Shown here: positions 5,554-20,827 of the stretch, in pieces
How the letters are laid out: each line of letters opens with the position of its first letter
Numbering within the stretch: position 1 is the first letter of the stretch
Origin: Nesterenkonia alba DSM 19423
GTDB taxonomy: Bacteria; Actinomycetota; Actinomycetes; Actinomycetales; Micrococcaceae
Reading direction: 5' to 3'
Assembly (NCBI RefSeq): GCF_000421745.1
Contig: NZ_ATXP01000001.1
Location: 248,001-312,000 of the forward strand
DNA: 64,000 nt
Notes under the pieces: generated by a model
What the model was told of the DNA's origin: nothing
The model's input: the letters and a program-made list of their open reading frames with translations, nothing else
Databases searched by the model: none
Position numbers and translations under genes: made by a program

Positions 5554-5700
5554 ACCTTCACAGTAAGCCCCACTATTGAGAATCGCCTAAGGTGCGAACC
5601 CTAGTCAGTCCGGTTCGCAACAGGGCCCGACGCCGGCGTCGTCCGTTATCCATCCCCCATACCGGTTGAACCCGTGCTCAGCACGTACAAGACTGAACGT

Positions 5701-6996
5701 GTGAGCACCCACTCTCTGCCCCCAGGACCCCGCACCCCTGCCGCTGTGCAGACTCTGCAGTTCTACTCCCGGAGGCAATCGGCCTTTCCGGCCTTTCACA
5801 CCCGCTATGGAGACACCTTCACCCTGCGCGCCTATCCCGGCCCGGTGACCTACGTGATGTTCACCCGGCCGGAGGACATCAAAGAGATCTTCGCTGGAGA
5901 CTCGTGGGAGTTCTCTGGAGCCGGTGGTAACGAAGTCCTCCGCGCGGCTGTGGGGGACAACTCGGTGATGCTCAACGACGGCGCGGCCCATCGCCGCATG
6001 CGCAAGTACCTGATGCCCGCCTTCTCCCCACGGGCGGTACGCGCCTACCGTCCCAGGGTGGAGGAGATCGTCACCCACCAGGTGTCCACGTGGCGACCCG
6101 GAGAGAAGGTCACAACCCTCCAGGCGATGAGCGGAATCACCCTAGAAGTCATGCTCCAGCTGGTCTTCGGGCTCACCACGGGAGAGCGCATGACCCAGCT
6201 CAGACCCCGGCTGCTGAAGCTGGTCGACGTCGACCCGCTGTTGGCCCTGGGGTGGATGTATCCGAGGACCCTGACCCGCATCCCGCCCTGGCGCGGCCCC
6301 CAGAAGAACCTCGAAGCCATTGATGAGCTCATCTACGCTGAGATCGCCGAACGCCGGGCCTCCGGCGGCACCGGGCAGGACATGCTCTCCCACCTGCTTC
6401 AGGTCACCGACGACGCCGAAGCGCCTCTGAGCGAGCAGGAGATCCGCGATCAACTGGTCACCTTGGTGCTGGCCGGGTATGAGACCACAGCCTCCGCGTT
6501 GAGCTGGACTCTGCACGAACTGGCCCGCCACCCGCAGATCCAGCAGCGGGCCGCAGACGCCGCCGCCGAGGGGGACGAAGACTACCTGGAGGCCTGCCTC
6601 AAAGAGGGAATGCGCCTGCATCCGATCATCGACTTCGTGGTGAAGATTCTGCGCAGTGAACAGACCATCGGCGGGTGGACTCTGCCGGCTGGCACCGGGG
6701 TGGTGCCGGCGATCATGCTCACCCACCACGATGAGACACACCACGACGACGCCGCTTCCTTCCGTCCCGAACGCTTCCTGGGGGAGAACACTCCGGCGGC
6801 GAATACGTGGATCCCGTTCGGTGGGGGCGTGCGCCGCTGCGTGGGGGCGGCCTTCGCCACGATGGAAGGAGTGGTCAGCCTCAAGGAAATCCTCACTCGA
6901 TTCCGACTCAGCGCAGAGAAACCCGCGCCCACCACACTGCGCAACATCACCAATGTGCCCGGGGACGGGGCACCGGTGAGACTGCAGGCACGGTGA
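5701..6996 (+). CDS. Cytochrome P450
   Basis: A soluble bacterial P450 of about 431 residues. The oxygen-activating I-helix motif is AGYETTASALSW, the K-helix ExxR is EGMR, and the heme loop is FGGGVRRCVGAAFA with the thiolate cysteine near residue 380. It starts PPGPRTPAAVQTLQFYSRRQ, a proline-rich hinge as in CYP110/CYP120-like P450s that act on fatty acids or terpenoids; the true substrate is unknown. GTG 5701 gives the standard N-terminus; a GTG at 5674 is an alternative. No ferredoxin or reductase gene is nearby. It converges on the operon of unknown function ending at 7068, leaving only about 70 bases between stops. Confidence 0.93.
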   Translation: MSTHSLPPGPRTPAAVQTLQFYSRRQSAFPAFHTRYGDTFTLRAYPGPVTYVMFTRPEDIKEIFAGDSWEFSGAGGNEVLRAAVGDNSVMLNDGAAHRRMRKYLMPAFSPRAVRAYRPRVEEIVTHQVSTWRPGEKVTTLQAMSGITLEVMLQLVFGLTTGERMTQLRPRLLKLVDVDPLLALGWMYPRTLTRIPPWRGPQKNLEAIDELIYAEIAERRASGGTGQDMLSHLLQVTDDAEAPLSEQEIRDQLVTLVLAGYETTASALSWTLHELARHPQIQQRAADAAAEGDEDYLEACLKEGMRLHPIIDFVVKILRSEQTIGGWTLPAGTGVVPAIMLTHHDETHHDDAASFRPERFLGENTPAANTWIPFGGGVRRCVGAAFATMEGVVSLKEILTRFRLSAEKPAPTTLRNITNVPGDGAPVRLQAR

Positions 6997-7067: not shown

Positions 7068-9587
7068 TCAGCGGGCGGTGAGCCGCGCTGACCGGGGCGG
7101 CACATCGGCGGGAACACCAGCGCGGAAGAACGCCACCGGGACCACCTCCGGGGCAGGTCCGGTCTGTTCGCCGTGCTCATCGGTGGGGGTGAGCACAGAA
7201 GTGACCCACCTGCTGGCTGCCCGGCGGGTGGTGGCCTCGTCGACCACCTCACTGACCGGGTGAACCGCCAGTCCGCGGCGGTGTAACTGCAACCAGAACC
7301 GCTGCAGCACCCGCCCAGCCTCGATGAGGCCAGCCGGATCGAGGTGGGCCGTTCCCTCCGACTCAGGTGCGGTGACGAACAGCACGACGGCGTTTCCGCG
7401 CCCATCATCGGGGACTTCTGTCAGCCGGGCCGCACCGCGGACCGCACCCAGGGGCACCCCACGAACCGCTTTGCTGATGCGGGAGAGTATCCGCTTCTGC
7501 CGCGATGGGTAGAACGCCCGTTCTGAGGCGGCGCGCTCGGCCCGCTGCAGTGCCGATTCGTTCGCATCCGGGGTCATCCGGGCGATGATCCCCGCTGCCG
7601 CCGGAGTGATCCGTCGGGCAGGGGCACTGCGCAGCACCCCTCCGGCCAGCGTTTGAGCCATCAGCCCTGCCGAACTGCGGGTGGTTCTGTTCTCCGGGAG
7701 CAGGCAGTTAAGACTCAACCCGTCGCGATGGTAGTCGGGGTGCTGCGGGTCTATTCGCAGCCACTGAAGCAGCTCGGTCATCAGCTGTCCGGAAGCGGTG
7801 AAGTGCCGGGCCGCAACCCGTTCCCAGGCGGCAGCCAGCACCGGATCCACCGCTACGGCCTCCACTGACTTTGGTGCGCCAGTTGCTGTGGCCTCCCCAC
7901 CTTCAGCCGGCTCTGCCGCCAGGTCCACCAGGCCGGCAAGGCTGCTCAGCCCGGCCGCGTGGCCAGCCTCCACCAAGGCCTCCCAGTTCCTCTGCAGTGT
8001 CCCGCGGTACACCCGCCGGGTCAGCACATCCTCGGCCTGTGCTGGCACCACGCCTGTGCGGGGAACGAAGCCCAGCTTCAGCTGCGTGTCTGTGCCGCTG
8101 CCGGTCACCGCGCGGATCTCAACCTCGACTCCAGCCTCGGCCGCTGCAGCGTCGAGTGACTCCACCCAAGCTCCCAGGCTTAAGTAGAGGTCCCGGAAGG
8201 TGGGGTCTCCCACGGGTAGCACTCGGTCCGGATGCACCCGGAGGCGGACGACGACGCCCTCGTCGTCTTCGATCACCTCAGGCGCCCACGGTTGAGTGTT
8301 GTGAGCACTCGGGGCCCGTCCGGCGATCTCCACCCAGGAGGCCACTGTCTGCACGGTCACCTCAGGCTGCGCACCCCCGCTCAGCTCTTTGCGGAAGAAT
8401 GCCAGCCGGTGCAGTCGATACCCGCCGGCCCGGGCGAAGACCGCCGCTGAGGCCGGGTTCTCCTCCCCAATGAAGGTCACCCGCAGCTTCCGGTACCCGC
8501 CTTCGTAGAGTTGTGCGAAGAGTTCCCGGGAGACCAGGCTGAGCAGCCCGCGCCCCTGGAATCTCGGATGGGTGCCCTGAACGATGAGTACTGCGTCCTG
8601 CAGAGAATCCTGCCGCTGCCGGACCGGCGGCAACCGTCGGCGCAGCAGCCCCGGAAGCTCCTGCACACCCAGTCTGCCGCCGGTGCCCCGCAGGGCGTCG
8701 ACCGGATCGGGGACCACCAACGCAAAGCTCGCCAGTGGCGGCTGCTCAGGATTGGTGCCGTCCTCACCGTGACCCGTCGCGGCCAGGGTGACGATGAGCC
8801 GCGGATCAGCGAGCAGCTCCAATCCCGCGGTCTGCTGGGTCATCTGGGCTCGGGAGATCTCCGTGTAGTAGGGCAACTGGGCGAAGGAGGCGTTGAGACC
8901 TGCGCGCAGTTGCTCCATGACGCCGCGCCGGCCACGGAATCGCCACCGTCGGACTGGGACCCGGCGAACCCCTGCGGCCCGGTACTCCTCTGCATGGGGC
9001 CGACGACGCCGGTCCGCTGGGATGCTCTGCACCGGCACCTCCCAGGTTGCGGCCGGGTACCACGGTTCGAAGCCGCGGGATGCCAGAATCTCCGGCAGTT
9101 CCGCGTCATTCCACGGGCTATCGAAGAATCCTGGGTGCTCGAAGCCACCGGTCACCGCTGCGCCGACTTGGTTCGGCAGCAGGCTCACCGGACCGAAGAC
9201 CCCTCCGGCGCCAGTGCGGGCAGCCTCGGCTTCGATCCAATCCAGAGCGGCGTGTAACGCCTCGGTGTGTTCCCACTCCAGGGCGCCGAAATACAGCGCC
9301 CCCGTCCCGGTGGTGACCCCCGCCGCACGGAGCCGAGCATCCAGCAGTGCCGAACGGTGGACCACCATACGCGCCACGGCCCGCCCGGTCGCCGAATCCC
9401 GCACCAGGTGGAGGGTGGCGATATCGACCCCGGGATGTTCTCCCCGTGCCCAGGCGCGGATGTCATCGGCCATCAGCGGCACGTGGTGGCCCTGACACCG
9501 CCCCAGCCGACCGGCACTGCCTGTCCCGAGGTGGATGAACTCCTCCACCTCGGTCTGGGAGGTGACGGGCTCGATGAGCAGGCTCAT
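7068..9587 (-). CDS. Acetyltransferase (YghO-like GNAT) fused to a nitroreductase-family domain
   Basis: An 839-residue two-domain protein. Residues about 1-405 resemble the YghO-like GNAT proteins: GPVSLLPNQVGAAVTGGFEH, a proline-rich WNDAELPEIL segment, and an acetyl-CoA loop HPRFQGRGLLSL near 340. Residues about 415-839 resemble the nitroreductase/Acg group, with the signature APSAHNTQPW near 423-432 and a late hydrophobic RVLQRFWLQLHRRGLAVHPV helix as in FMN-binding nitroreductases. The fusion is in one uninterrupted frame. Its start codon overlaps the stop of the upstream gene by four bases (ATGA), so it is the last gene of a translationally coupled operon. Acyl transfer plus flavin redox chemistry on one substrate is an inference; the substrate is unknown. 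Confidence 0.8.
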   Translation of the reverse strand: MSLLIEPVTSQTEVEEFIHLGTGSAGRLGRCQGHHVPLMADDIRAWARGEHPGVDIATLHLVRDSATGRAVARMVVHRSALLDARLRAAGVTTGTGALYFGALEWEHTEALHAALDWIEAEAARTGAGGVFGPVSLLPNQVGAAVTGGFEHPGFFDSPWNDAELPEILASRGFEPWYPAATWEVPVQSIPADRRRRPHAEEYRAAGVRRVPVRRWRFRGRRGVMEQLRAGLNASFAQLPYYTEISRAQMTQQTAGLELLADPRLIVTLAATGHGEDGTNPEQPPLASFALVVPDPVDALRGTGGRLGVQELPGLLRRRLPPVRQRQDSLQDAVLIVQGTHPRFQGRGLLSLVSRELFAQLYEGGYRKLRVTFIGEENPASAAVFARAGGYRLHRLAFFRKELSGGAQPEVTVQTVASWVEIAGRAPSAHNTQPWAPEVIEDDEGVVVRLRVHPDRVLPVGDPTFRDLYLSLGAWVESLDAAAAEAGVEVEIRAVTGSGTDTQLKLGFVPRTGVVPAQAEDVLTRRVYRGTLQRNWEALVEAGHAAGLSSLAGLVDLAAEPAEGGEATATGAPKSVEAVAVDPVLAAAWERVAARHFTASGQLMTELLQWLRIDPQHPDYHRDGLSLNCLLPENRTTRSSAGLMAQTLAGGVLRSAPARRITPAAAGIIARMTPDANESALQRAERAASERAFYPSRQKRILSRISKAVRGVPLGAVRGAARLTEVPDDGRGNAVVLFVTAPESEGTAHLDPAGLIEAGRVLQRFWLQLHRRGLAVHPVSEVVDEATTRRAASRWVTSVLTPTDEHGEQTGPAPEVVPVAFFRAGVPADVPPRSARLTAR

Positions 9588-10159
9588 CGGCGTCGTACCA
9601 GTGTGTCCCGTGCTGAGCCGGTCAGGGCGCGTCCCAGGGCTGCCACCTGCCCGGCGCCGCGGATGCCTGCCCGCAGCCGGGCCGGCAGGTTTCCGGGTGG
9701 CCGGTCAGCCGAGCGCTGAGACTCCCACCGTTCGATCATCCGCAGTTCGTCACGATCCGCCCGCCAGGTGCCATTGGCGTAGCCCACCTCATCGGCGGTG
9801 TAGGTGCGGATAAACCCGCCGAGCACCGGGGCGGAATCCGGGTCAGCCGGCCAGGTGCCCGAGTTCTCATCGGTGCCGACCAGCCAGTGCATGATGGCCT
9901 GATGCTCATCGGTCTTGGCGAACTCGTAGAGCTGCTCTCGGGTCTCAAAGGCCACCACCAGGCCGATCCGCAGCGGAAAACGGTAGTAGCTCAAGTGCCA
10001 CAGGTATCCGGGTGCCTGCTTCAGCCGCCGGGCCAGCGGCGGCCAGAGGATCAGCTGCTGGAGGAACCCCTTGGGGGTGCGGTACTCGTTCTGGCCCAGG
10101 AACACCGCCCCGGCGCGAGCCTGAGGGGCCTTACATGCGGAGAAGTCGCGGGTGCGCAC
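9584..10159 (-). CDS. Predicted dimeric alpha/beta-barrel protein of unknown function
   Basis: A 191-residue protein. The central part (about 25-110) reads like a ferredoxin-fold alpha/beta barrel as in ABM monooxygenases and EthD/DUF4188-type proteins: GFLQQLILWPPLARRLKQAP, GYLWHLSYYRFP, IGLVVAFETREQLYEFAKTD and EHQAIMHWLVG. The C-terminus (about 150-191) is Arg/Ala-rich. I see no cofactor motif, and this family call is by pattern only. It lies six bases after the adenylating enzyme and overlaps the acetyltransferase-nitroreductase gene by four bases, so all three are expected to act together. Confidence 0.6.
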   Translation of the reverse strand: MRTRDFSACKAPQARAGAVFLGQNEYRTPKGFLQQLILWPPLARRLKQAPGYLWHLSYYRFPLRIGLVVAFETREQLYEFAKTDEHQAIMHWLVGTDENSGTWPADPDSAPVLGGFIRTYTADEVGYANGTWRADRDELRMIERWESQRSADRPPGNLPARLRAGIRGAGQVAALGRALTGSARDTLVRRR

Positions 10160-10165
10160 AGCGGA

Positions 10166-11824
10166 TCAGCCTCCCTGATTGCGGGTGAGGTAGACGTTTT
10201 TGATCTTCTGGGGCGTCTCGGCGAAAGGGCCGGTGCCGTAATCGTGGATCTGAACCAGGATCTCCGCGGCACTGGGATCCTCCTGGAGTGATTCAGCCAC
10301 ATCGCGGGATACCGCAGCCAGGTGCTCCAATACTCCGGTGGCGCAGGTCTCGGCCAGCTGCTGGCGGGCGTCCTCGTCCAGTGCGGCCTCCGGGTGGGTC
10401 TGGGGGTCACGCAGCTGGATGTGCAGGGTGGGGCGGTGCTCGAACTCGCTGATCTCGGTCAACTCGATCTGGAAGGAGTCGATGAGTTTGGCGGTCTCCG
10501 GGTCCCGGTAGAGCCCGTTCTGCACATCGAGGGGGTAAATGTTTGCCCCCATGTAGGAGATCGTCGAATCGGACCGGCCGAACAGTAATAAAAACGGCAG
10601 TTTCATGCGCTGGTGTCGGTAGGCCTGCTTGAGCTTGACTGTCAGCTGGGGGAACTCCCGGGTGATCTCCACCATCTCCGGGAAGGAGAGAATGCGGGCT
10701 TCATCGCCGATGTTGTACCGCAGCCGGGGGCTCATCACCGCAGCGGAGTTAATGGTGACGACTAGTTCGTCGTCGTCGGTGGTCTCCATGTAGGTCTCTA
10801 AGGGGTTGTACTGGAAGATCATCGGAGTGCGGTGCTCATGGTCGCCGAGCAGACGACGTCGGAAGCTGGGGTTGGACTCCAGCTCTTTGCGCAGCGTCAC
10901 CGAGAGATCAGTTTCCCCACCCATACCGATGGTCAGATCGCTGGCCCCGTAACCGGAGTAGACCCGGTCGAAGCGCCGCTGCAGGTAGTCGCGCAGCCCC
11001 TCGGTCATCGCTTCCCCGCCAACGAACCCGTTGAGCCGGTAGTCAGCGAACTCCTCACCGGCGGCGTCGAGCCGATCGACCAAGTGCTTGAGAAACGGCG
11101 GGTAAGCGGTGATGAGGTAGGTGAAGTCGGGACCGAAGTGCCGCAGGGTGTCGAGGATCTTCTCCAGATCCGGTCCGGTGTTCTTCACCATGGCGATCTT
11201 CGCCATTGCCTGACCGGTGTTGGTGCCGGTAGCCCAGGCACCCATGGAGAACGCGTTAATGCAGAACAAGTTCTCCGTGCCGAAGAGCATGGTCACGTAG
11301 CCGGCAACGTTTTTGTGGACGGTATCCAGCTCGGCGGCAGAACGCATCCAGTTGAACGGCCGGCCCGAGGAGCCGGAAGACTCATCGACCACTGTGCCGG
11401 GGACTTCGATCTCCCCGCCCCAACACCGAGCATCCTCTTCATAGCGGCGAACGTAGTCATCCTTAGAGGTCTCCGGGTAGGCGGAGATATCCCACCAGCG
11501 GAAGGTGAAGTCCCGGCGAGCCAGGTAGTCCTGGTAGGCGGGCACATCGAGGCTGGCGTGCTGGCAGATCATCCAGGCGTTGACGCGAGCGAAGCGCTCC
11601 AGACCGGGATGGTAATTCCGGGCGGTGAACCGCCACACCGAGGGGTCCGAGCGGTACAGCCCAAACAGGGCGGTCAGTCCCACATTCGCGGTGCGCAGAG
11701 TCAGCTGCCGGGCGATATTGACCGGACCGAGCCGGTGGGGGAGCCGCTTCAGGTGGGCGTGCTCAGCTTTGGGTCGCGCCGGCGTGAGCCGCAGCGCTTT
11801 CAGTGCCGAACTCCATGACGCCAT
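10166..11824 (-). CDS. PaaK/CapK-like adenylate-forming enzyme (coenzyme F390 synthetase-like)
   Basis: A 552-residue protein with the layout of the phenylacetate-CoA ligase/CapK branch of adenylating enzymes. The phosphate loop VDESSGSSGRPFNW lies near residue 145, a YSGYGASDLT aromatic-glycine motif sits mid-protein, YNIGDEARIL is the ribose-binding aspartate region, and LLFGRSDSTISYMGANIYP is the hinge. Such enzymes activate a carboxylate (or a phenol in F390 synthetase) with ATP, then pass it to CoA or an acceptor. The N-terminus (1-100) is longer than in PaaK. It is the first catalytic gene of the operon, 21 bases after the DUF4870 gene. Its substrate is unknown; no carrier protein is nearby. 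Confidence 0.75.
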   Translation of the reverse strand: MASWSSALKALRLTPARPKAEHAHLKRLPHRLGPVNIARQLTLRTANVGLTALFGLYRSDPSVWRFTARNYHPGLERFARVNAWMICQHASLDVPAYQDYLARRDFTFRWWDISAYPETSKDDYVRRYEEDARCWGGEIEVPGTVVDESSGSSGRPFNWMRSAAELDTVHKNVAGYVTMLFGTENLFCINAFSMGAWATGTNTGQAMAKIAMVKNTGPDLEKILDTLRHFGPDFTYLITAYPPFLKHLVDRLDAAGEEFADYRLNGFVGGEAMTEGLRDYLQRRFDRVYSGYGASDLTIGMGGETDLSVTLRKELESNPSFRRRLLGDHEHRTPMIFQYNPLETYMETTDDDELVVTINSAAVMSPRLRYNIGDEARILSFPEMVEITREFPQLTVKLKQAYRHQRMKLPFLLLFGRSDSTISYMGANIYPLDVQNGLYRDPETAKLIDSFQIELTEISEFEHRPTLHIQLRDPQTHPEAALDEDARQQLAETCATGVLEHLAAVSRDVAESLQEDPSAAEILVQIHDYGTGPFAETPQKIKNVYLTRNQGG

Positions 11825-11845
11825 GCCAGTCCCCCTTTGAGTGTT

Positions 11846-12490
11846 TTAGCGGATGAACGGAATCGCCCAGTACTTGAACTTCTTCCGGCGGTAGGCAGCC
11901 ACTGAACCGAGGATGGAGAGCACCACGTTGATAGTCATCACCGCCATGAACGCCAGCAGTAGCATCATCCACACCAGGGCCATGCCACCGGCGACCACGC
12001 CCCCGGCACCCGGATCGGCACCGAGGATGAACGCAAACATGCCGAAGTAGCTGATGAAGAACAGGATGCTACCCACCACGTAGACCCCCACCAGGGTCAA
12101 CTCCCAGTTCAGTGCGGTTTTGCCGTGGTCATCGATCAGCCGGGAACGACGCCGGAAGATCAGCCATATCACCAGCGGCACAATGAAGGAGAAGAACAGT
12201 CCGCCTAAGTGGATCCCGACCCCCCAGCCCTGTTCCTCCGAGGGGCTGAGCGGTTGTTCATCGGCATAGCGGGCCGCCTCATTGAAGGGGTAGTCCCCCG
12301 TCGGAGCGGAGGATGAGTGTTGATACCCGCCGTGCTGGTAGTCACCCTGCGGGTAGCCACTGTGTTGATAACCGCCGTGCTGATAACCGCCTTGCTGATA
12401 CCCCGGGTGGGGATGGCCACTGGGCTGGTAACCCCCGGATTGTTCAGGGTCCTGCCCCTGCCAGCCGTGGTGGCCGTGCTGTTCCGTCAC
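11846..12490 (-). CDS. DUF4870 membrane protein with Gly/Tyr/Gln/His repeats
   Basis: A 214-residue protein. Residues about 14-60 are low complexity, built on GYQHGG/GYQHS units coded by an imperfect 15-base repeat (about 12320-12410). Residues 85-214 form the DUF4870 domain: HLGGLFFSFIVPLVIWLIF, a charged RLIDDHGKTALNWEL segment, then two more hydrophobic spans and a basic RRKKFKYWAIPFIR end. DUF4870 proteins are common small Gram-positive membrane proteins of unsettled function. The start is GTG 12490 behind GGAGGG. It may be the first gene of the operon that runs down to 7068, since only 21 bases separate it from the next gene. Confidence 0.82.
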   Translation of the reverse strand: MTEQHGHHGWQGQDPEQSGGYQPSGHPHPGYQQGGYQHGGYQHSGYPQGDYQHGGYQHSSSAPTGDYPFNEAARYADEQPLSPSEEQGWGVGIHLGGLFFSFIVPLVIWLIFRRRSRLIDDHGKTALNWELTLVGVYVVGSILFFISYFGMFAFILGADPGAGGVVAGGMALVWMMLLLAFMAVMTINVVLSILGSVAAYRRKKFKYWAIPFIR

Positions 12491-18371: not shown

Positions 18372-19238
18372 ATGAATGCACCGACGAACTCCTCCGGGCT
18401 GCCTACCGGGGAGCTGCTGGGACGCTACCGGACCTACGAGGAGGCCCAGCGGGTGGTCGATCACTTGGCCGGTGCCGAGGGTTTCGATGTCAAAGCCCTC
18501 AGCATTGTGGGCAATGACCTGCGCAGTGTGGAGCACATCCGCTCGCGCTTGTCCTACCCCCGGGTGGCGCTAGCCGGGGCGGCTCAAGGCTCACTGTTTG
18601 GCGGGTTCATCGCGTTCATCTTCTTCCTGTTTTCCCCGCAAGCTCCCTTAGTGGAGCTGGTCGCGATGATCTTCCTCGGTGCAGCGGTGTGGATGATCGC
18701 CGGGATCATCGGCTACGCCATCCGCCGTGGGCGCCGGGACTTCTCCTCCACCCAGCAGCTGATCGCCACCACCTATGACGTGGTCTGTGACTTCTCCCAG
18801 GTAGGGCGGGCCCGCCAGCTGGTCCGGGAATCCGGGGTGGTCAGCCTCAATGCGTCCAACGACCCGACCGGTCGGTCCACGAACCTCGCCGGCCCCCAGG
18901 CCCACCAGCCTCCCGCAGGTATGTCCGGACCCGCTGCGCCGTCCTCCGGGGCGCCTGCCTCAGCGGACAGGGGCGACGACGCCGGCACCTCAGCTGGGAC
19001 CCCGGCCCGTACCGGCTATGAGACCCTGCCGGATGGGCGGCCCCGTTACGGTGCCCGCCGTGAGGACTACGAACACCCTCCCCGCGACTCCTCCCGCACC
19101 CAGGAAGATCCCCCAGCTCACCAGGAAACAGCGCCGCAGGAATCGGCGCAGGAGAAATCCGCGGCACCTACTGGATCCGCAGCGGGAGCCGAGGACCAGG
19201 ACTCACACTCCGAGCGGCCACCACGCGGCGAGGAATAA
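18372..19238 (+). CDS. General-stress-protein-like membrane protein
   Basis: A 288-residue protein. Residues about 17-62 (LGRYRTYEEAQRVVDHLAGA, LSIVGNDL) resemble the general-stress 17M-like domain, followed by two membrane segments (about 72-92 and 98-118, with Gly-rich AQGSLFGGFIAFIFF) and a cytosolic CDFSQVGRARQLV strand. The C-terminal 130 residues are Pro/Ser/Glu-rich and probably disordered. Homologues lie beside mrp in mycobacteria and are sometimes named magnesium transporters without evidence. Function is unknown. Confidence 0.75.
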   Translation: MNAPTNSSGLPTGELLGRYRTYEEAQRVVDHLAGAEGFDVKALSIVGNDLRSVEHIRSRLSYPRVALAGAAQGSLFGGFIAFIFFLFSPQAPLVELVAMIFLGAAVWMIAGIIGYAIRRGRRDFSSTQQLIATTYDVVCDFSQVGRARQLVRESGVVSLNASNDPTGRSTNLAGPQAHQPPAGMSGPAAPSSGAPASADRGDDAGTSAGTPARTGYETLPDGRPRYGARREDYEHPPRDSSRTQEDPPAHQETAPQESAQEKSAAPTGSAAGAEDQDSHSERPPRGEE

Positions 19239-19273
19239 CGCCTGACAGCCACCGGCTCTGAGGTCAGTGTCGA

Positions 19274-20827
19274 TCAGCCGAGCAAACGCTGAACCCACGC
19301 TTCGACGTCGTCGGGCTCGCGTGGCACGGCAGCGGAGAGGTTCTCCCCGCCGTCTTCGGTGACGAGGATGTCGTCTTCAATCCGAACACCAATGCCCCGG
19401 TACTCCTCCGGCACCGCGAGATCTTCCTTCTTGAAGTACAGCCCCGGTTCGATGGTGAAGATCATCCCCGGCTCCAGCTCCCCATCCAGGTAGAGCTCCC
19501 GTTTGGCTTGAGCGCAATCATGGACATCCAGGCCCAGGTGGTGGCTGGTGCCGTGGGGCATCCACCGGCGGTGATGCTGGCCCTCCGGCGAGAGCGCCTC
19601 ATCCAAGCTCACCGGGAGTAGACCCCACTCATCGAGATGCTCAGCTAGTACCCGTACCGCCGTGGCGTGTAGCTCACGGAACTTCACGCCGGGCCGCACA
19701 ATGCTCATCGCCGCGTTCTGGGCTGCCAAGACCGCCTCATAGATCCGCCGCTGGACAGGTGAATAGGTCCCGGAGACGGGGATGGTGCGGGTGATATCGC
19801 AGGTATAGAGGGAATCGACCTCGATGCCAGCATCCAGCAGCAGCAGTTCACCCGGTTCGATCCGCGCATTGTTCCGGATCCAGTGCAAAATCGTGGCGTT
19901 GTTGCCCGATGCGGCGATCGTGTCATAACCGAGGTCGTTGCCTTCCAGACGTGCCCGGGCGAAGAACGCACCTTCAACGATCCGCTCACCACGCTCGGTG
20001 CCCACCGCCCGGGGCAGGGCCCGGATGACATCCTCGAAACCAGCCTGTGTGGCTGCCACGGAGGAGCGCATCTGTTCGATCTCCCACGGATCCTTCACCA
20101 GACGCAGCTCGGAGAGGAATTCGGTGACTTTGCCGTCGGCTTCCACCGCGGACTCGAGTTCGACCCCGGCCTGGCTGCGGGCGGAGTCGATGAGCGCATC
20201 CACCTGGGGTGAGGAGTTACGCAGCAGCCGGATCTGGGTAGCCCCGGCGTCCTTGGTCACCGCTGGTTCGAACTCGTCGATGTCCTTAGTGCGCAGCCCC
20301 AAACGGGTCCGGAACTCCTCCAGCACCGGCCGGGGGCCGATCCAGAACTCCCCATGCCGAGCCGAGGCGTAGAACTCCTCGGTATCGCGGCCGGCCATAG
20401 GTTTGAAGTACAGGGTGGCCTCGTGATGGCCGCCGTCGTCGCCGGTTCCCTCATCCACCGGTTCCAGGATGAGCACTGCATCGGGCTCGTGGTCCACCCC
20501 CAGGCCGGTCAGGTGAGCGAAGGCTGAATGCGGCCGGAACCGGTAGTCGGTGTCATTGGAGCGGACTTTGAGCGGGCCTGCGGGAACCACCACGCGCTGG
20601 CCGCGAAACTCCTCAGAGACTCGCCGGCGCCGCTGAGCGGCATGGTCGGCGACCTCATCCCGGGTGTACTCCGGGGGCTGTGATGGCGCCCAGTGGGAGG
20701 CCATGAATTCCTTAAAAGCCTTCGACGTCGGCTTCTGGGAGCGGTTGGTATCCCGTTGTGTGGGCGTGTCCTCACCTGAGGGGGTGCCGGTGGGTTCTGT
20801 ATCGGTCTGCGTGGTGTTCTCGCTCAT
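19274..20827 (-). CDS. pepP: Xaa-Pro aminopeptidase (M24B metallopeptidase)
   Basis: A 517-residue enzyme releasing N-terminal residues before proline. The N-terminal domain (about 40-200) has YRFRPHSAFAHLTGL and the C-terminal pita-bread domain carries the dinuclear metal ligands: LLLDAGIEVDSLYTCDITRT (two Asp), GTSHHLGLDVHD (His), TIEPGLYF (Glu) and VRIEDDILVTE (Glu). The open frame extends upstream to 21508, but the ATG at 20825-20827 (MSENTTQTDTEPTG) gives the family's length and leaves the PHP gene's space free. It is divergent from the PHP gene. Confidence 0.92.
   Translation of the reverse strand: MSENTTQTDTEPTGTPSGEDTPTQRDTNRSQKPTSKAFKEFMASHWAPSQPPEYTRDEVADHAAQRRRRVSEEFRGQRVVVPAGPLKVRSNDTDYRFRPHSAFAHLTGLGVDHEPDAVLILEPVDEGTGDDGGHHEATLYFKPMAGRDTEEFYASARHGEFWIGPRPVLEEFRTRLGLRTKDIDEFEPAVTKDAGATQIRLLRNSSPQVDALIDSARSQAGVELESAVEADGKVTEFLSELRLVKDPWEIEQMRSSVAATQAGFEDVIRALPRAVGTERGERIVEGAFFARARLEGNDLGYDTIAASGNNATILHWIRNNARIEPGELLLLDAGIEVDSLYTCDITRTIPVSGTYSPVQRRIYEAVLAAQNAAMSIVRPGVKFRELHATAVRVLAEHLDEWGLLPVSLDEALSPEGQHHRRWMPHGTSHHLGLDVHDCAQAKRELYLDGELEPGMIFTIEPGLYFKKEDLAVPEEYRGIGVRIEDDILVTEDGGENLSAAVPREPDDVEAWVQRLLG

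What the first reader, a model, noticed from the sequence alone, without database searches (positions are those of the whole stretch)
7068..12490. Four-gene operon of unknown function: DUF4870 membrane protein, adenylating enzyme, alpha/beta-barrel protein and acetyltransferase-nitroreductase fusion
Seen: four minus-strand genes run 12490 to 7068 with spacings of 21, 6 and -4 bases. Known: CapK/PaaK-like enzymes activate carboxylates with ATP, GNATs move acyl groups, and nitroreductases reduce nitro groups or quinones with FMN. Inference: the set could build or tailor a small molecule or envelope component. I know of no pathway with this exact gene content, and no carrier protein or transporter is next to it. 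This is the strongest candidate here for an undescribed system.
Basis: partly seen in the sequence, partly recalled or inferred. Interest (0 to 1): 0.72.

Follow-up and report, generated by a model that had tools for sequence, protein, structure and literature searches.

The report
Likely oxazolone-type small-molecule gene module
Three of the four genes form a conserved bacterial enzyme set that probably attaches an acyl chain to an amino acid, activates it with ATP and oxidises it, resembling a recently described tuberculosis-bacterium pathway but using a different activating enzyme.

Summary
DUF4870 does not belong: it keeps its chromosomal place in three genus genomes that lack the rest. 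The other three genes form a conserved module. A PaaK-like ANL, ABM-fold protein, YghO-like tandem GNAT and Acg-like flavoenzyme (FDO) occur in that order in 17 of 39 distinct ANL-like loci; 11 (one in Gemmatimonadota) have only FDO and ANL; 11, divergent or incomplete, have no FDO. In 296 genomes the eight best FDO hits and the three best GNAT hits all lie in these loci. The logic matches mycobacterial N-acyl-oxazolone synthesis (acyltransferase, ThiF cyclase, FDO desaturase), but an ANL stands in ThiF's place, the acyltransferase is YghO-like, and the FDO is a separate clade. Best reading: N-acylation of an amino acid, ATP-dependent activation and cyclisation by the ANL, O2-dependent desaturation by the FDO, tailoring by the ABM protein. 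Substrates and product are inferred. The paper listings I saw show no description. New variant of a known kind.

The parts
10166..11824 (-). PaaK-like ANL adenylate-forming enzyme (552 aa), proposed to activate/cyclise an N-acyl amino acid
   Evidence: PaaK structures by profile; invariant in 20 aligned rows: D147, E148, S149, G151, S152, G154; G293, A294, D296; R369, Y370, D374; G416, R417, D419, G426; K542 in 90% or more. That these are the ANL core motifs is recalled family knowledge.
9584..10159 (-). ABM-type alpha/beta-barrel protein (191 aa); its step is unknown
   Evidence: AlphaFold2 model, mean pLDDT 66, 86-89 over residues 21-90; Foldseek best 1lq9 (ActVA-Orf6), E 1.7e-5; Pfam ABM and af470-like below cut-off
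8388..9587 (-). N-terminal half of the fusion: YghO-like tandem GNAT, proposed N-acyltransferase (residues 1-400)
   Evidence: hhalign to E. coli YghO: 357 columns, probability 99.6, E 4.2e-24, against 0.7 and 0.082 for one unrelated E. coli protein; tandem GNAT structures among the best fold matches
7068..8387 (-). [quoted passage not shown]
   Evidence: 2ymv (M. smegmatis Acg homologue) E 2.6e-18 by profile and first in Foldseek; P-S-x-H-N-x-Q-P motif in nearly all rows; groups with the ANL-linked FDOs
11846..12490 (-). DUF4870 membrane protein: flanking gene, judged NOT part of the system
   Evidence: same chromosomal surroundings in G522, G640 and G642, where the ANL was not found; no homologue in module loci L014-L030 and L056 by tblastn or blastp

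Best explanation
A three-gene biosynthetic module. The YghO-like tandem GNAT puts an acyl group from acyl-CoA on the amino group of an amino acid. The PaaK-like ANL adenylates the free carboxylate of the N-acyl amino acid, and the amide oxygen then closes a 5(4H)-oxazolone (azlactone). The Acg-like FDO, fused to the GNAT in Nesterenkonia, removes two hydrogens (C-alpha/C-beta) with O2 to give a dehydro-oxazolone or, after hydrolysis, an N-acyl dehydro-amino acid. The ABM-fold protein tailors or binds the product. In effect an ANL does the job that ThiF does in TyzACB/TrzAS/OxzAB. Shown: domain identities, conserved order, fusion, FDO linkage of this ANL clade. Inferred: substrates, ring closure, the ABM step, the product.
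For: ANL and FDO lie in one gene string on one strand in 28 of 39 distinct ANL-like loci. Of loci outside the rows of profile A3, 8 of 8 that score 527 bits or more with it have the FDO (L056, L058-L061, L196-L198). In 296 genomes the 8 FDO hits of 274 bits or more all lie in ANL loci; next hit 174 bits. The 3 GNAT hits of 518 bits or more all lie in ANL loci; next 165 bits. FDOs outside the clade are not linked: no ANL, GNAT or ABM match in 17 stretches (3.7-10 kb, L096-L112, E 1e-3) nor in 8 stretches with intermediate FDOs (L153-L160, E 1e-2). ABM and GNAT come together: both in 17, neither in 11 of the 28. GNAT and FDO share one frame in 4 Nesterenkonia loci (window, L014, L016, L056; in L014 the FDO's C-terminus is in another frame). 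GNAT half is YghO-like, and yghO is listed as aca, acyl-CoA N-acyltransferase of dihydroceramide synthesis (passages of PMC9386255). TyzC and TrzS desaturate N-acyl amino acids or their oxazolones beside an ATP-using adenylator/cyclase and an acyltransferase (PMC10404671, PMC12856293). ANL motifs intact.
Against: No ThiF here, and the GNAT is of another family than the FeeM-like TyzA, so both partners differ. The FDOs form a clade apart from TrzS and from the Acg-like group. Equivalents of TrzS R540 and Q651 (approximate mapping) are F and H in the window protein. 11 of 28 FDO loci have no GNAT beside them, so the core reaction may not need a locally made N-acyl amino acid. A PaaK-like ANL may make CoA thioesters instead. 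11 of 39 ANL-like loci have no FDO, and 3 of the 11 ANL genomes (G072, G078, G223) are of that kind. No substrate evidence.
Confidence: 0.5

Rival explanations
1. ANL is an ordinary CoA ligase and the FDO an alpha,beta-desaturase of the resulting acyl-CoA; the GNAT then moves the unsaturated acyl group to an amine. No oxazolone ring forms.
For: PaaK relatives make aryl/acyl-CoA (family knowledge; relation); the FDO+ANL pair occurs without GNAT in 11 of 28 loci; YghO-type enzymes are described as acyl-CoA N-acyltransferases.
Against: The characterised FDOs TyzC and TrzS act on N-acyl amino acids or their oxazolones with a carboxylate adenylator that cyclises; the ANL scores 32.5 bits against a PaaK equivalog cut-off of 646.3.
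Confidence: 0.25
2. Tailoring of a peptide, protein or other natural product: ANL activates a carboxylate of a larger scaffold, FDO dehydrogenates it, GNAT and ABM decorate it.
For: Nitroreductase-family oxidases tailor peptides (cyclodipeptide oxidase AlbAB, seen only in the listing); ABM folds occur in polyketide enzymes (ActVA-Orf6, SnoaB among the matches).
Against: Among the neighbours scanned (30 proteins) no precursor, NRPS, PKS or carrier protein recurs. Not every neighbour was scanned.
Confidence: 0.13
3. Ceramide or other sphingoid lipid synthesis: YghO-like GNAT as ceramide synthase with the ANL as acyl-activating partner, as in the E. coli spt-acp-epimerase-AMP ligase-yghO locus.
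For: GNAT half is YghO-like; the E. coli yghO locus holds a fatty acyl-AMP ligase; 6 of 8 module genomes have a relative of serine palmitoyltransferase at E 0.001, which may be other members of that enzyme family.
Against: No such relative at E 0.001 in the window's own genome (98.5% complete) or in G447; the E. coli AMP ligase hardly aligns with this ANL (probability 9%); the FDO is unexplained.
Confidence: 0.04
4. Stress or detoxification set: an ordinary nitro/quinone reductase with unrelated neighbours.
For: The Pfam name of the domain.
Against: Tight ANL linkage; the two characterised FDO-A enzymes are desaturases.
Confidence: 0.04

Closest known systems
TyzACB / TrzAS N-acyl-oxazolone biosynthesis of mycobacteria (PMC10404671, PMC12856293) and OxzAB of Pseudoalteromonas rubra (as told in PMC10404671)
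   Same: acyltransferase + ATP-dependent carboxylate-activating enzyme + nitroreductase-superfamily FDO; partners fused in some members
   Different: PaaK-type ANL instead of ThiF; YghO-like tandem GNAT instead of a FeeM-like acyltransferase; FDO in its own clade; extra ABM protein; the FDO is fused to the GNAT, not to the activating enzyme
YghO / Aca acyl-CoA N-acyltransferase of bacterial dihydroceramide synthesis
   Same: full-length profile homology of the GNAT half; an AMP-forming ligase in the E. coli locus
   Different: no serine palmitoyltransferase relative in the window's genome; ligase of another ANL branch; FDO present
Acg (Rv2032) / Rv3131 FMN proteins
   Same: best structural match 2ymv; shared P-S-x-H-N-x-Q-P motif
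   Different: separate clade from the Acg-like rows (Acg itself not in the tree); 111 bits against the NCBIfam cut-off of 199; ANL-linked
PaaK phenylacetate-CoA ligase
   Same: ANL relation and motifs
   Different: far below the PaaK equivalog cut-off

Membership tests
N-acyl-oxazolone pathway (OxzAB/TyzACB/TrzAS) | ThiF/E1-type ATP-dependent cyclase beside or fused to the FDO | tested here: not met
   no ThiF among the six window proteins scanned; the only match in the genome to the ThiF part of NF005901 is on contig C5, not beside the module; an ANL stands in its place
N-acyl-oxazolone pathway (OxzAB/TyzACB/TrzAS) | nitroreductase-superfamily FDO beside the carboxylate-activating enzyme | tested here: met
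   28 of 39 distinct ANL-like loci; 2ymv match; but a clade apart from TrzS
N-acyl-oxazolone pathway (OxzAB/TyzACB/TrzAS) | TrzS residues R540 and Q651 | tested here: inconclusive
   approximate mapping through two TrzS-type proteins gives F and H in the window; the M. smegmatis protein itself was not at hand
N-acyl-oxazolone pathway (OxzAB/TyzACB/TrzAS) | adjacent amino-acid N-acyltransferase of the TyzA/TrzA (FeeM-like) kind | not tested
   no TyzA or TrzA sequence was compared; the GNAT here is YghO-like
N-acyl-oxazolone pathway (OxzAB/TyzACB/TrzAS) | product is an N-acyl oxazolone | not testable with these tools
   needs chemistry
ANL superfamily | ATP-binding and catalytic motifs | tested here: met
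   motif residues invariant in 20 rows, C-terminal Lys in 90% or more; PaaK structures by profile
PaaK (equivalog) | NCBIfam TIGR02155 cut-off of 646.3 bits | tested here: not met
   32.5 bits
Acg family (NF047509) | curated cut-off of 199 bits | tested here: not met
   111.3 bits; the TrzS-type protein of L096 scores 126.6, so the score does not separate the two kinds
YghO-like tandem GNAT | full-length homology | tested here: met
   357 columns, probability 99.6, E 4.2e-24; one unrelated control 0.7 and 0.082
Bacterial ceramide synthesis | serine palmitoyltransferase in the genome | tested here: not met
   no relative in G000 at E 0.001
ABM monooxygenase (PF03992) | Pfam cut-off of 23.1 bits | tested here: not met
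   15.4 bits; only the fold matches

The most novel reading that the evidence does not exclude
A second, independently assembled enzymatic route to acyl-oxazolones (or N-acyl dehydro-amino acids), in which a PaaK-like ANL replaces the ThiF cyclase, spread patchily through Actinomycetota and into Gemmatimonadota; the stripped two-gene FDO+ANL form would be the minimal activate-and-desaturate unit.
Probability: 0.42. Interest if true: 0.78.

Novelty: new variant of a known kind. Interest (0 to 1): 0.6.

Why it matters
PMC10404671 calls oxazolones not commonly described in biology, and PMC12856293 calls their physiological role a major unresolved question. A second enzyme set with another activating enzyme would show that the chemistry was assembled more than once, would take it to bacteria outside the mycolic-acid group that are easier to work with (recalled), and would give the FDO group, which includes Acg of unknown function, a second genetic partner. 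It also gives a testable role to proteins otherwise known only as PaaK-like or nitroreductase-like.

Tried and rejected
DUF4870 as a member: rejected by synteny; three of the genus hits were examined, others (such as G646 and G652) were not. P450 at 5674-6996: convergent, no relative in L014-L033, left out. Ceramide synthesis: disfavoured. Defence system: no PADLOC match at E 0.01 for the four proteins. Promoter/terminator scan uninformative: 0 promoter-like sites, 3 terminator-like against 2.5 expected. The plasmid search gave three records, all large replicons. The PDB sequence search with the ABM profile gave one weak, unrelated match. Literature: searches returned no paper; some searches were judged from listings (20 of 32 papers shown); one search gave the key papers. 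Rows dropped before counts: L055, L057 and L195 are the contigs of L016, L015 and L014 fetched again (equal contig lengths and scores), leaving 39 of 42 rows. The FDO tree left out L055, L057 and matches under 200 residues (L107 among them), predates L196-L198, and flags L025, L026 and L035 as long branches of unsure place; TyzC, OxzB and Acg themselves are not in it. Its module rows had been fetched through their ANL, so searches are the independent tests. L032's contig ends inside its ANL, L036 and L062 hold incomplete ANLs, so absence of the FDO there says little.
Full report
Observation. The four minus-strand genes are at the stated places with gaps of 21 and 6 bases and an overlap of 4. 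The genome is a 2.59-Mb assembly in 36 contigs. G432, of the same genus, has the contig length (115,857) and scores of Nesterenkonia sp. GX14115 (L016), so the window is taken to be Nesterenkonia (inference).

DUF4870 is a neighbour, not a member. No homologue lies in module loci L014-L030 and L056 by tblastn or blastp. The ANL is found in 4 of 30 genus genomes. In three without it (G522, G640, G642) the best DUF4870 match lies among flanking genes of the window: beside the UppP gene and near the 3093-4187 gene in G522, between the cation-efflux gene and the 3093-4187 gene in G640 and G642. Genes directly upstream of the ANL differ elsewhere: a WYL regulator in L014 and L056, an ABM protein in L015, a short-chain dehydrogenase in L016.

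The conserved module. All 10 loci found with the ANL in genome contigs (Nesterenkonia, Auritidibacter, Sanguibacter, Cellulomonas, Actinotalea, Brevibacterium) carry ANL, ABM, GNAT and FDO in this order. One search examined 42 rows, the window and 41 loci; three are repeats, leaving 39 distinct loci. The FDO lies in the same gene string on the same strand in 28 (32 to 2353 bases between the ANL and FDO matches); 17 of these have both ABM and GNAT, 11 have neither. The 11 loci without FDO are L031, L032, L033, L036, L062 and L199-L204: divergent or incomplete ANLs. Under profile A3 the scored ANLs with an FDO have 527 bits or more, those without 289 or less. A3 was built from FDO-bearing loci, so the fairer check is the loci outside it: 8 of 8 at 527 bits or more have the FDO (L056, L058-L061, L196-L198), 0 of 9 at 289 bits or less (L031, L032, L062, L199-L204).

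Independent surveys. In the same 296 phylum genomes the ANL query hit 11 at E 1e-10, the GNAT profile 27 at E 1e-5 and the FDO profile 25 at E 1e-15. The eight FDO hits of 274 bits or more all lie in ANL loci; the next is 174 bits (G209, in a string with alanine dehydrogenase and peptidase M24 genes), the rest 133 or less. Three of the 11 ANL genomes (G072, G078, G223) have no such FDO. The three GNAT hits of 518 bits or more lie in ANL loci; the other 24 genomes score 165 bits or less. Stretches around 17 FDO loci outside the clade (L096-L112) and 8 more (L153-L160) show no ANL, GNAT or ABM match. Distribution is patchy: 7 of 245 family, 4 of 30 genus, 12 of 396 phylum and 11 of 286 class genomes have an ANL at E 1e-30, some of the divergent kind. 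The two-gene form lies in Gemmatirosa (Gemmatimonadota), the full set in Nonomuraea.

Parts. The ANL matches PaaK structures by profile (2y4o, E 2e-14) and keeps the motif residues. The ABM protein has a beta-alpha-beta-beta-alpha-alpha-beta core in a model of modest confidence (mean pLDDT 66) and matches ABM folds; in L017-L022 it is longer, with repeated profile matches. The GNAT half of the model (mean pLDDT 75 for the whole protein) matches tandem GNAT structures, and its profile aligns end to end with E. coli YghO (one unrelated control). YghO is listed as an acyl-CoA N-acyltransferase of dihydroceramide synthesis (PMC9386255, passages). G345 and G347, read here as the CoA-binding GxG (recalled motif), are invariant in 13 rows. 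The FDO is closest to the Acg structure 2ymv. In a 42-row tree the 25 ANL-linked FDOs are one side of a branch (99/96), apart from 2 TrzS-type and 15 other FDOs; three of the 25 have long branches.

Mechanism. PMC10404671 (abstract, introduction, first part of the results, discussion) reports that TyzA N-acylates Tyr/Phe, TyzB (ThiF) cyclises with ATP and TyzC (FDO) desaturates with O2. PMC12856293 (abstract and three sections) reports the same for TrzA and the ThiF-FDO fusion TrzS. Passages of PMC12479983 link ThiF and nitroreductase genes to N-acyl dehydrotyrosines by comparative genomics. The module here has the same three roles with an ANL as activating enzyme; step order and ring closure are inferred by analogy. 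Against it: both partner families differ, the FDO clade is separate, TrzS R540 and Q651 seem not conserved (approximate), and 11 of 28 loci lack a GNAT. An acyl-CoA desaturase reading remains open.

Rivals tested. Ceramide synthesis: no serine palmitoyltransferase relative in the window's genome or G447, although 6 of 8 module genomes have one, and a dissimilar ligase. Defence: no PADLOC family at E 0.01.

Literature. Searches for these combinations gave no description in what was shown (listings only). The two oxazolone papers hold none of the words ANL, CoA ligase, PaaK or YghO. The library holds only open-licence papers, so this is not proof of absence.

Verdict. New variant of a known kind: it works like an oxazolone pathway but is not filed as a member, because the ThiF feature was tested and not met.

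Noticed in passing
L015:12170-14397 and 18911-19691: In Auritidibacter ignavus the GNAT-FDO gene is split over two frames, and a second fragment with GNAT and FDO matches lies about 4.5 kb downstream; decay or assembly error.
   Followed up: partly
L096:2746-6952: A TrzS-type ThiF-FDO fusion ORF (genome G038) lies 3 bases from a P450 ORF, with a methyltransferase ORF on its other side, suggesting further tailored oxazolones; whether a TrzA gene is near was not settled.
   Followed up: partly
window:5674-6996: A P450 gene (+) ends 71 bases from the end of the module, tail to tail; it shares 32% identity over 219 residues with the P450 beside TrzS in L096. No link shown.
   Followed up: partly
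L014:8850-9974 and L056:7660-8649: A WYL-domain regulator ORF ends 5 bases before the ANL ORF in two Nesterenkonia loci, a possible pathway regulator.
   Followed up: no
L017-L022 (e.g. L018:11578-12375): The ABM protein is 264-344 aa instead of 144-198 aa, with repeated profile matches: perhaps a fused pair of barrels.
   Followed up: no
L031, L032: Genomes of 1.4-1.5 Mb with a divergent ANL and no FDO found in the stretch (L032's contig ends inside the ANL).
   Followed up: no
window:7001-10000: G+C is 68-69% over GNAT-FDO and ABM, against 61-66% in the rest of the first 20 kb, ANL included.
   Followed up: no
phylum survey: YghO-like GNATs of 165 bits or less occur in 24 of 296 genomes outside the module, several rows with one stop reported inside the match; their contexts were not examined.
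   Followed up: no
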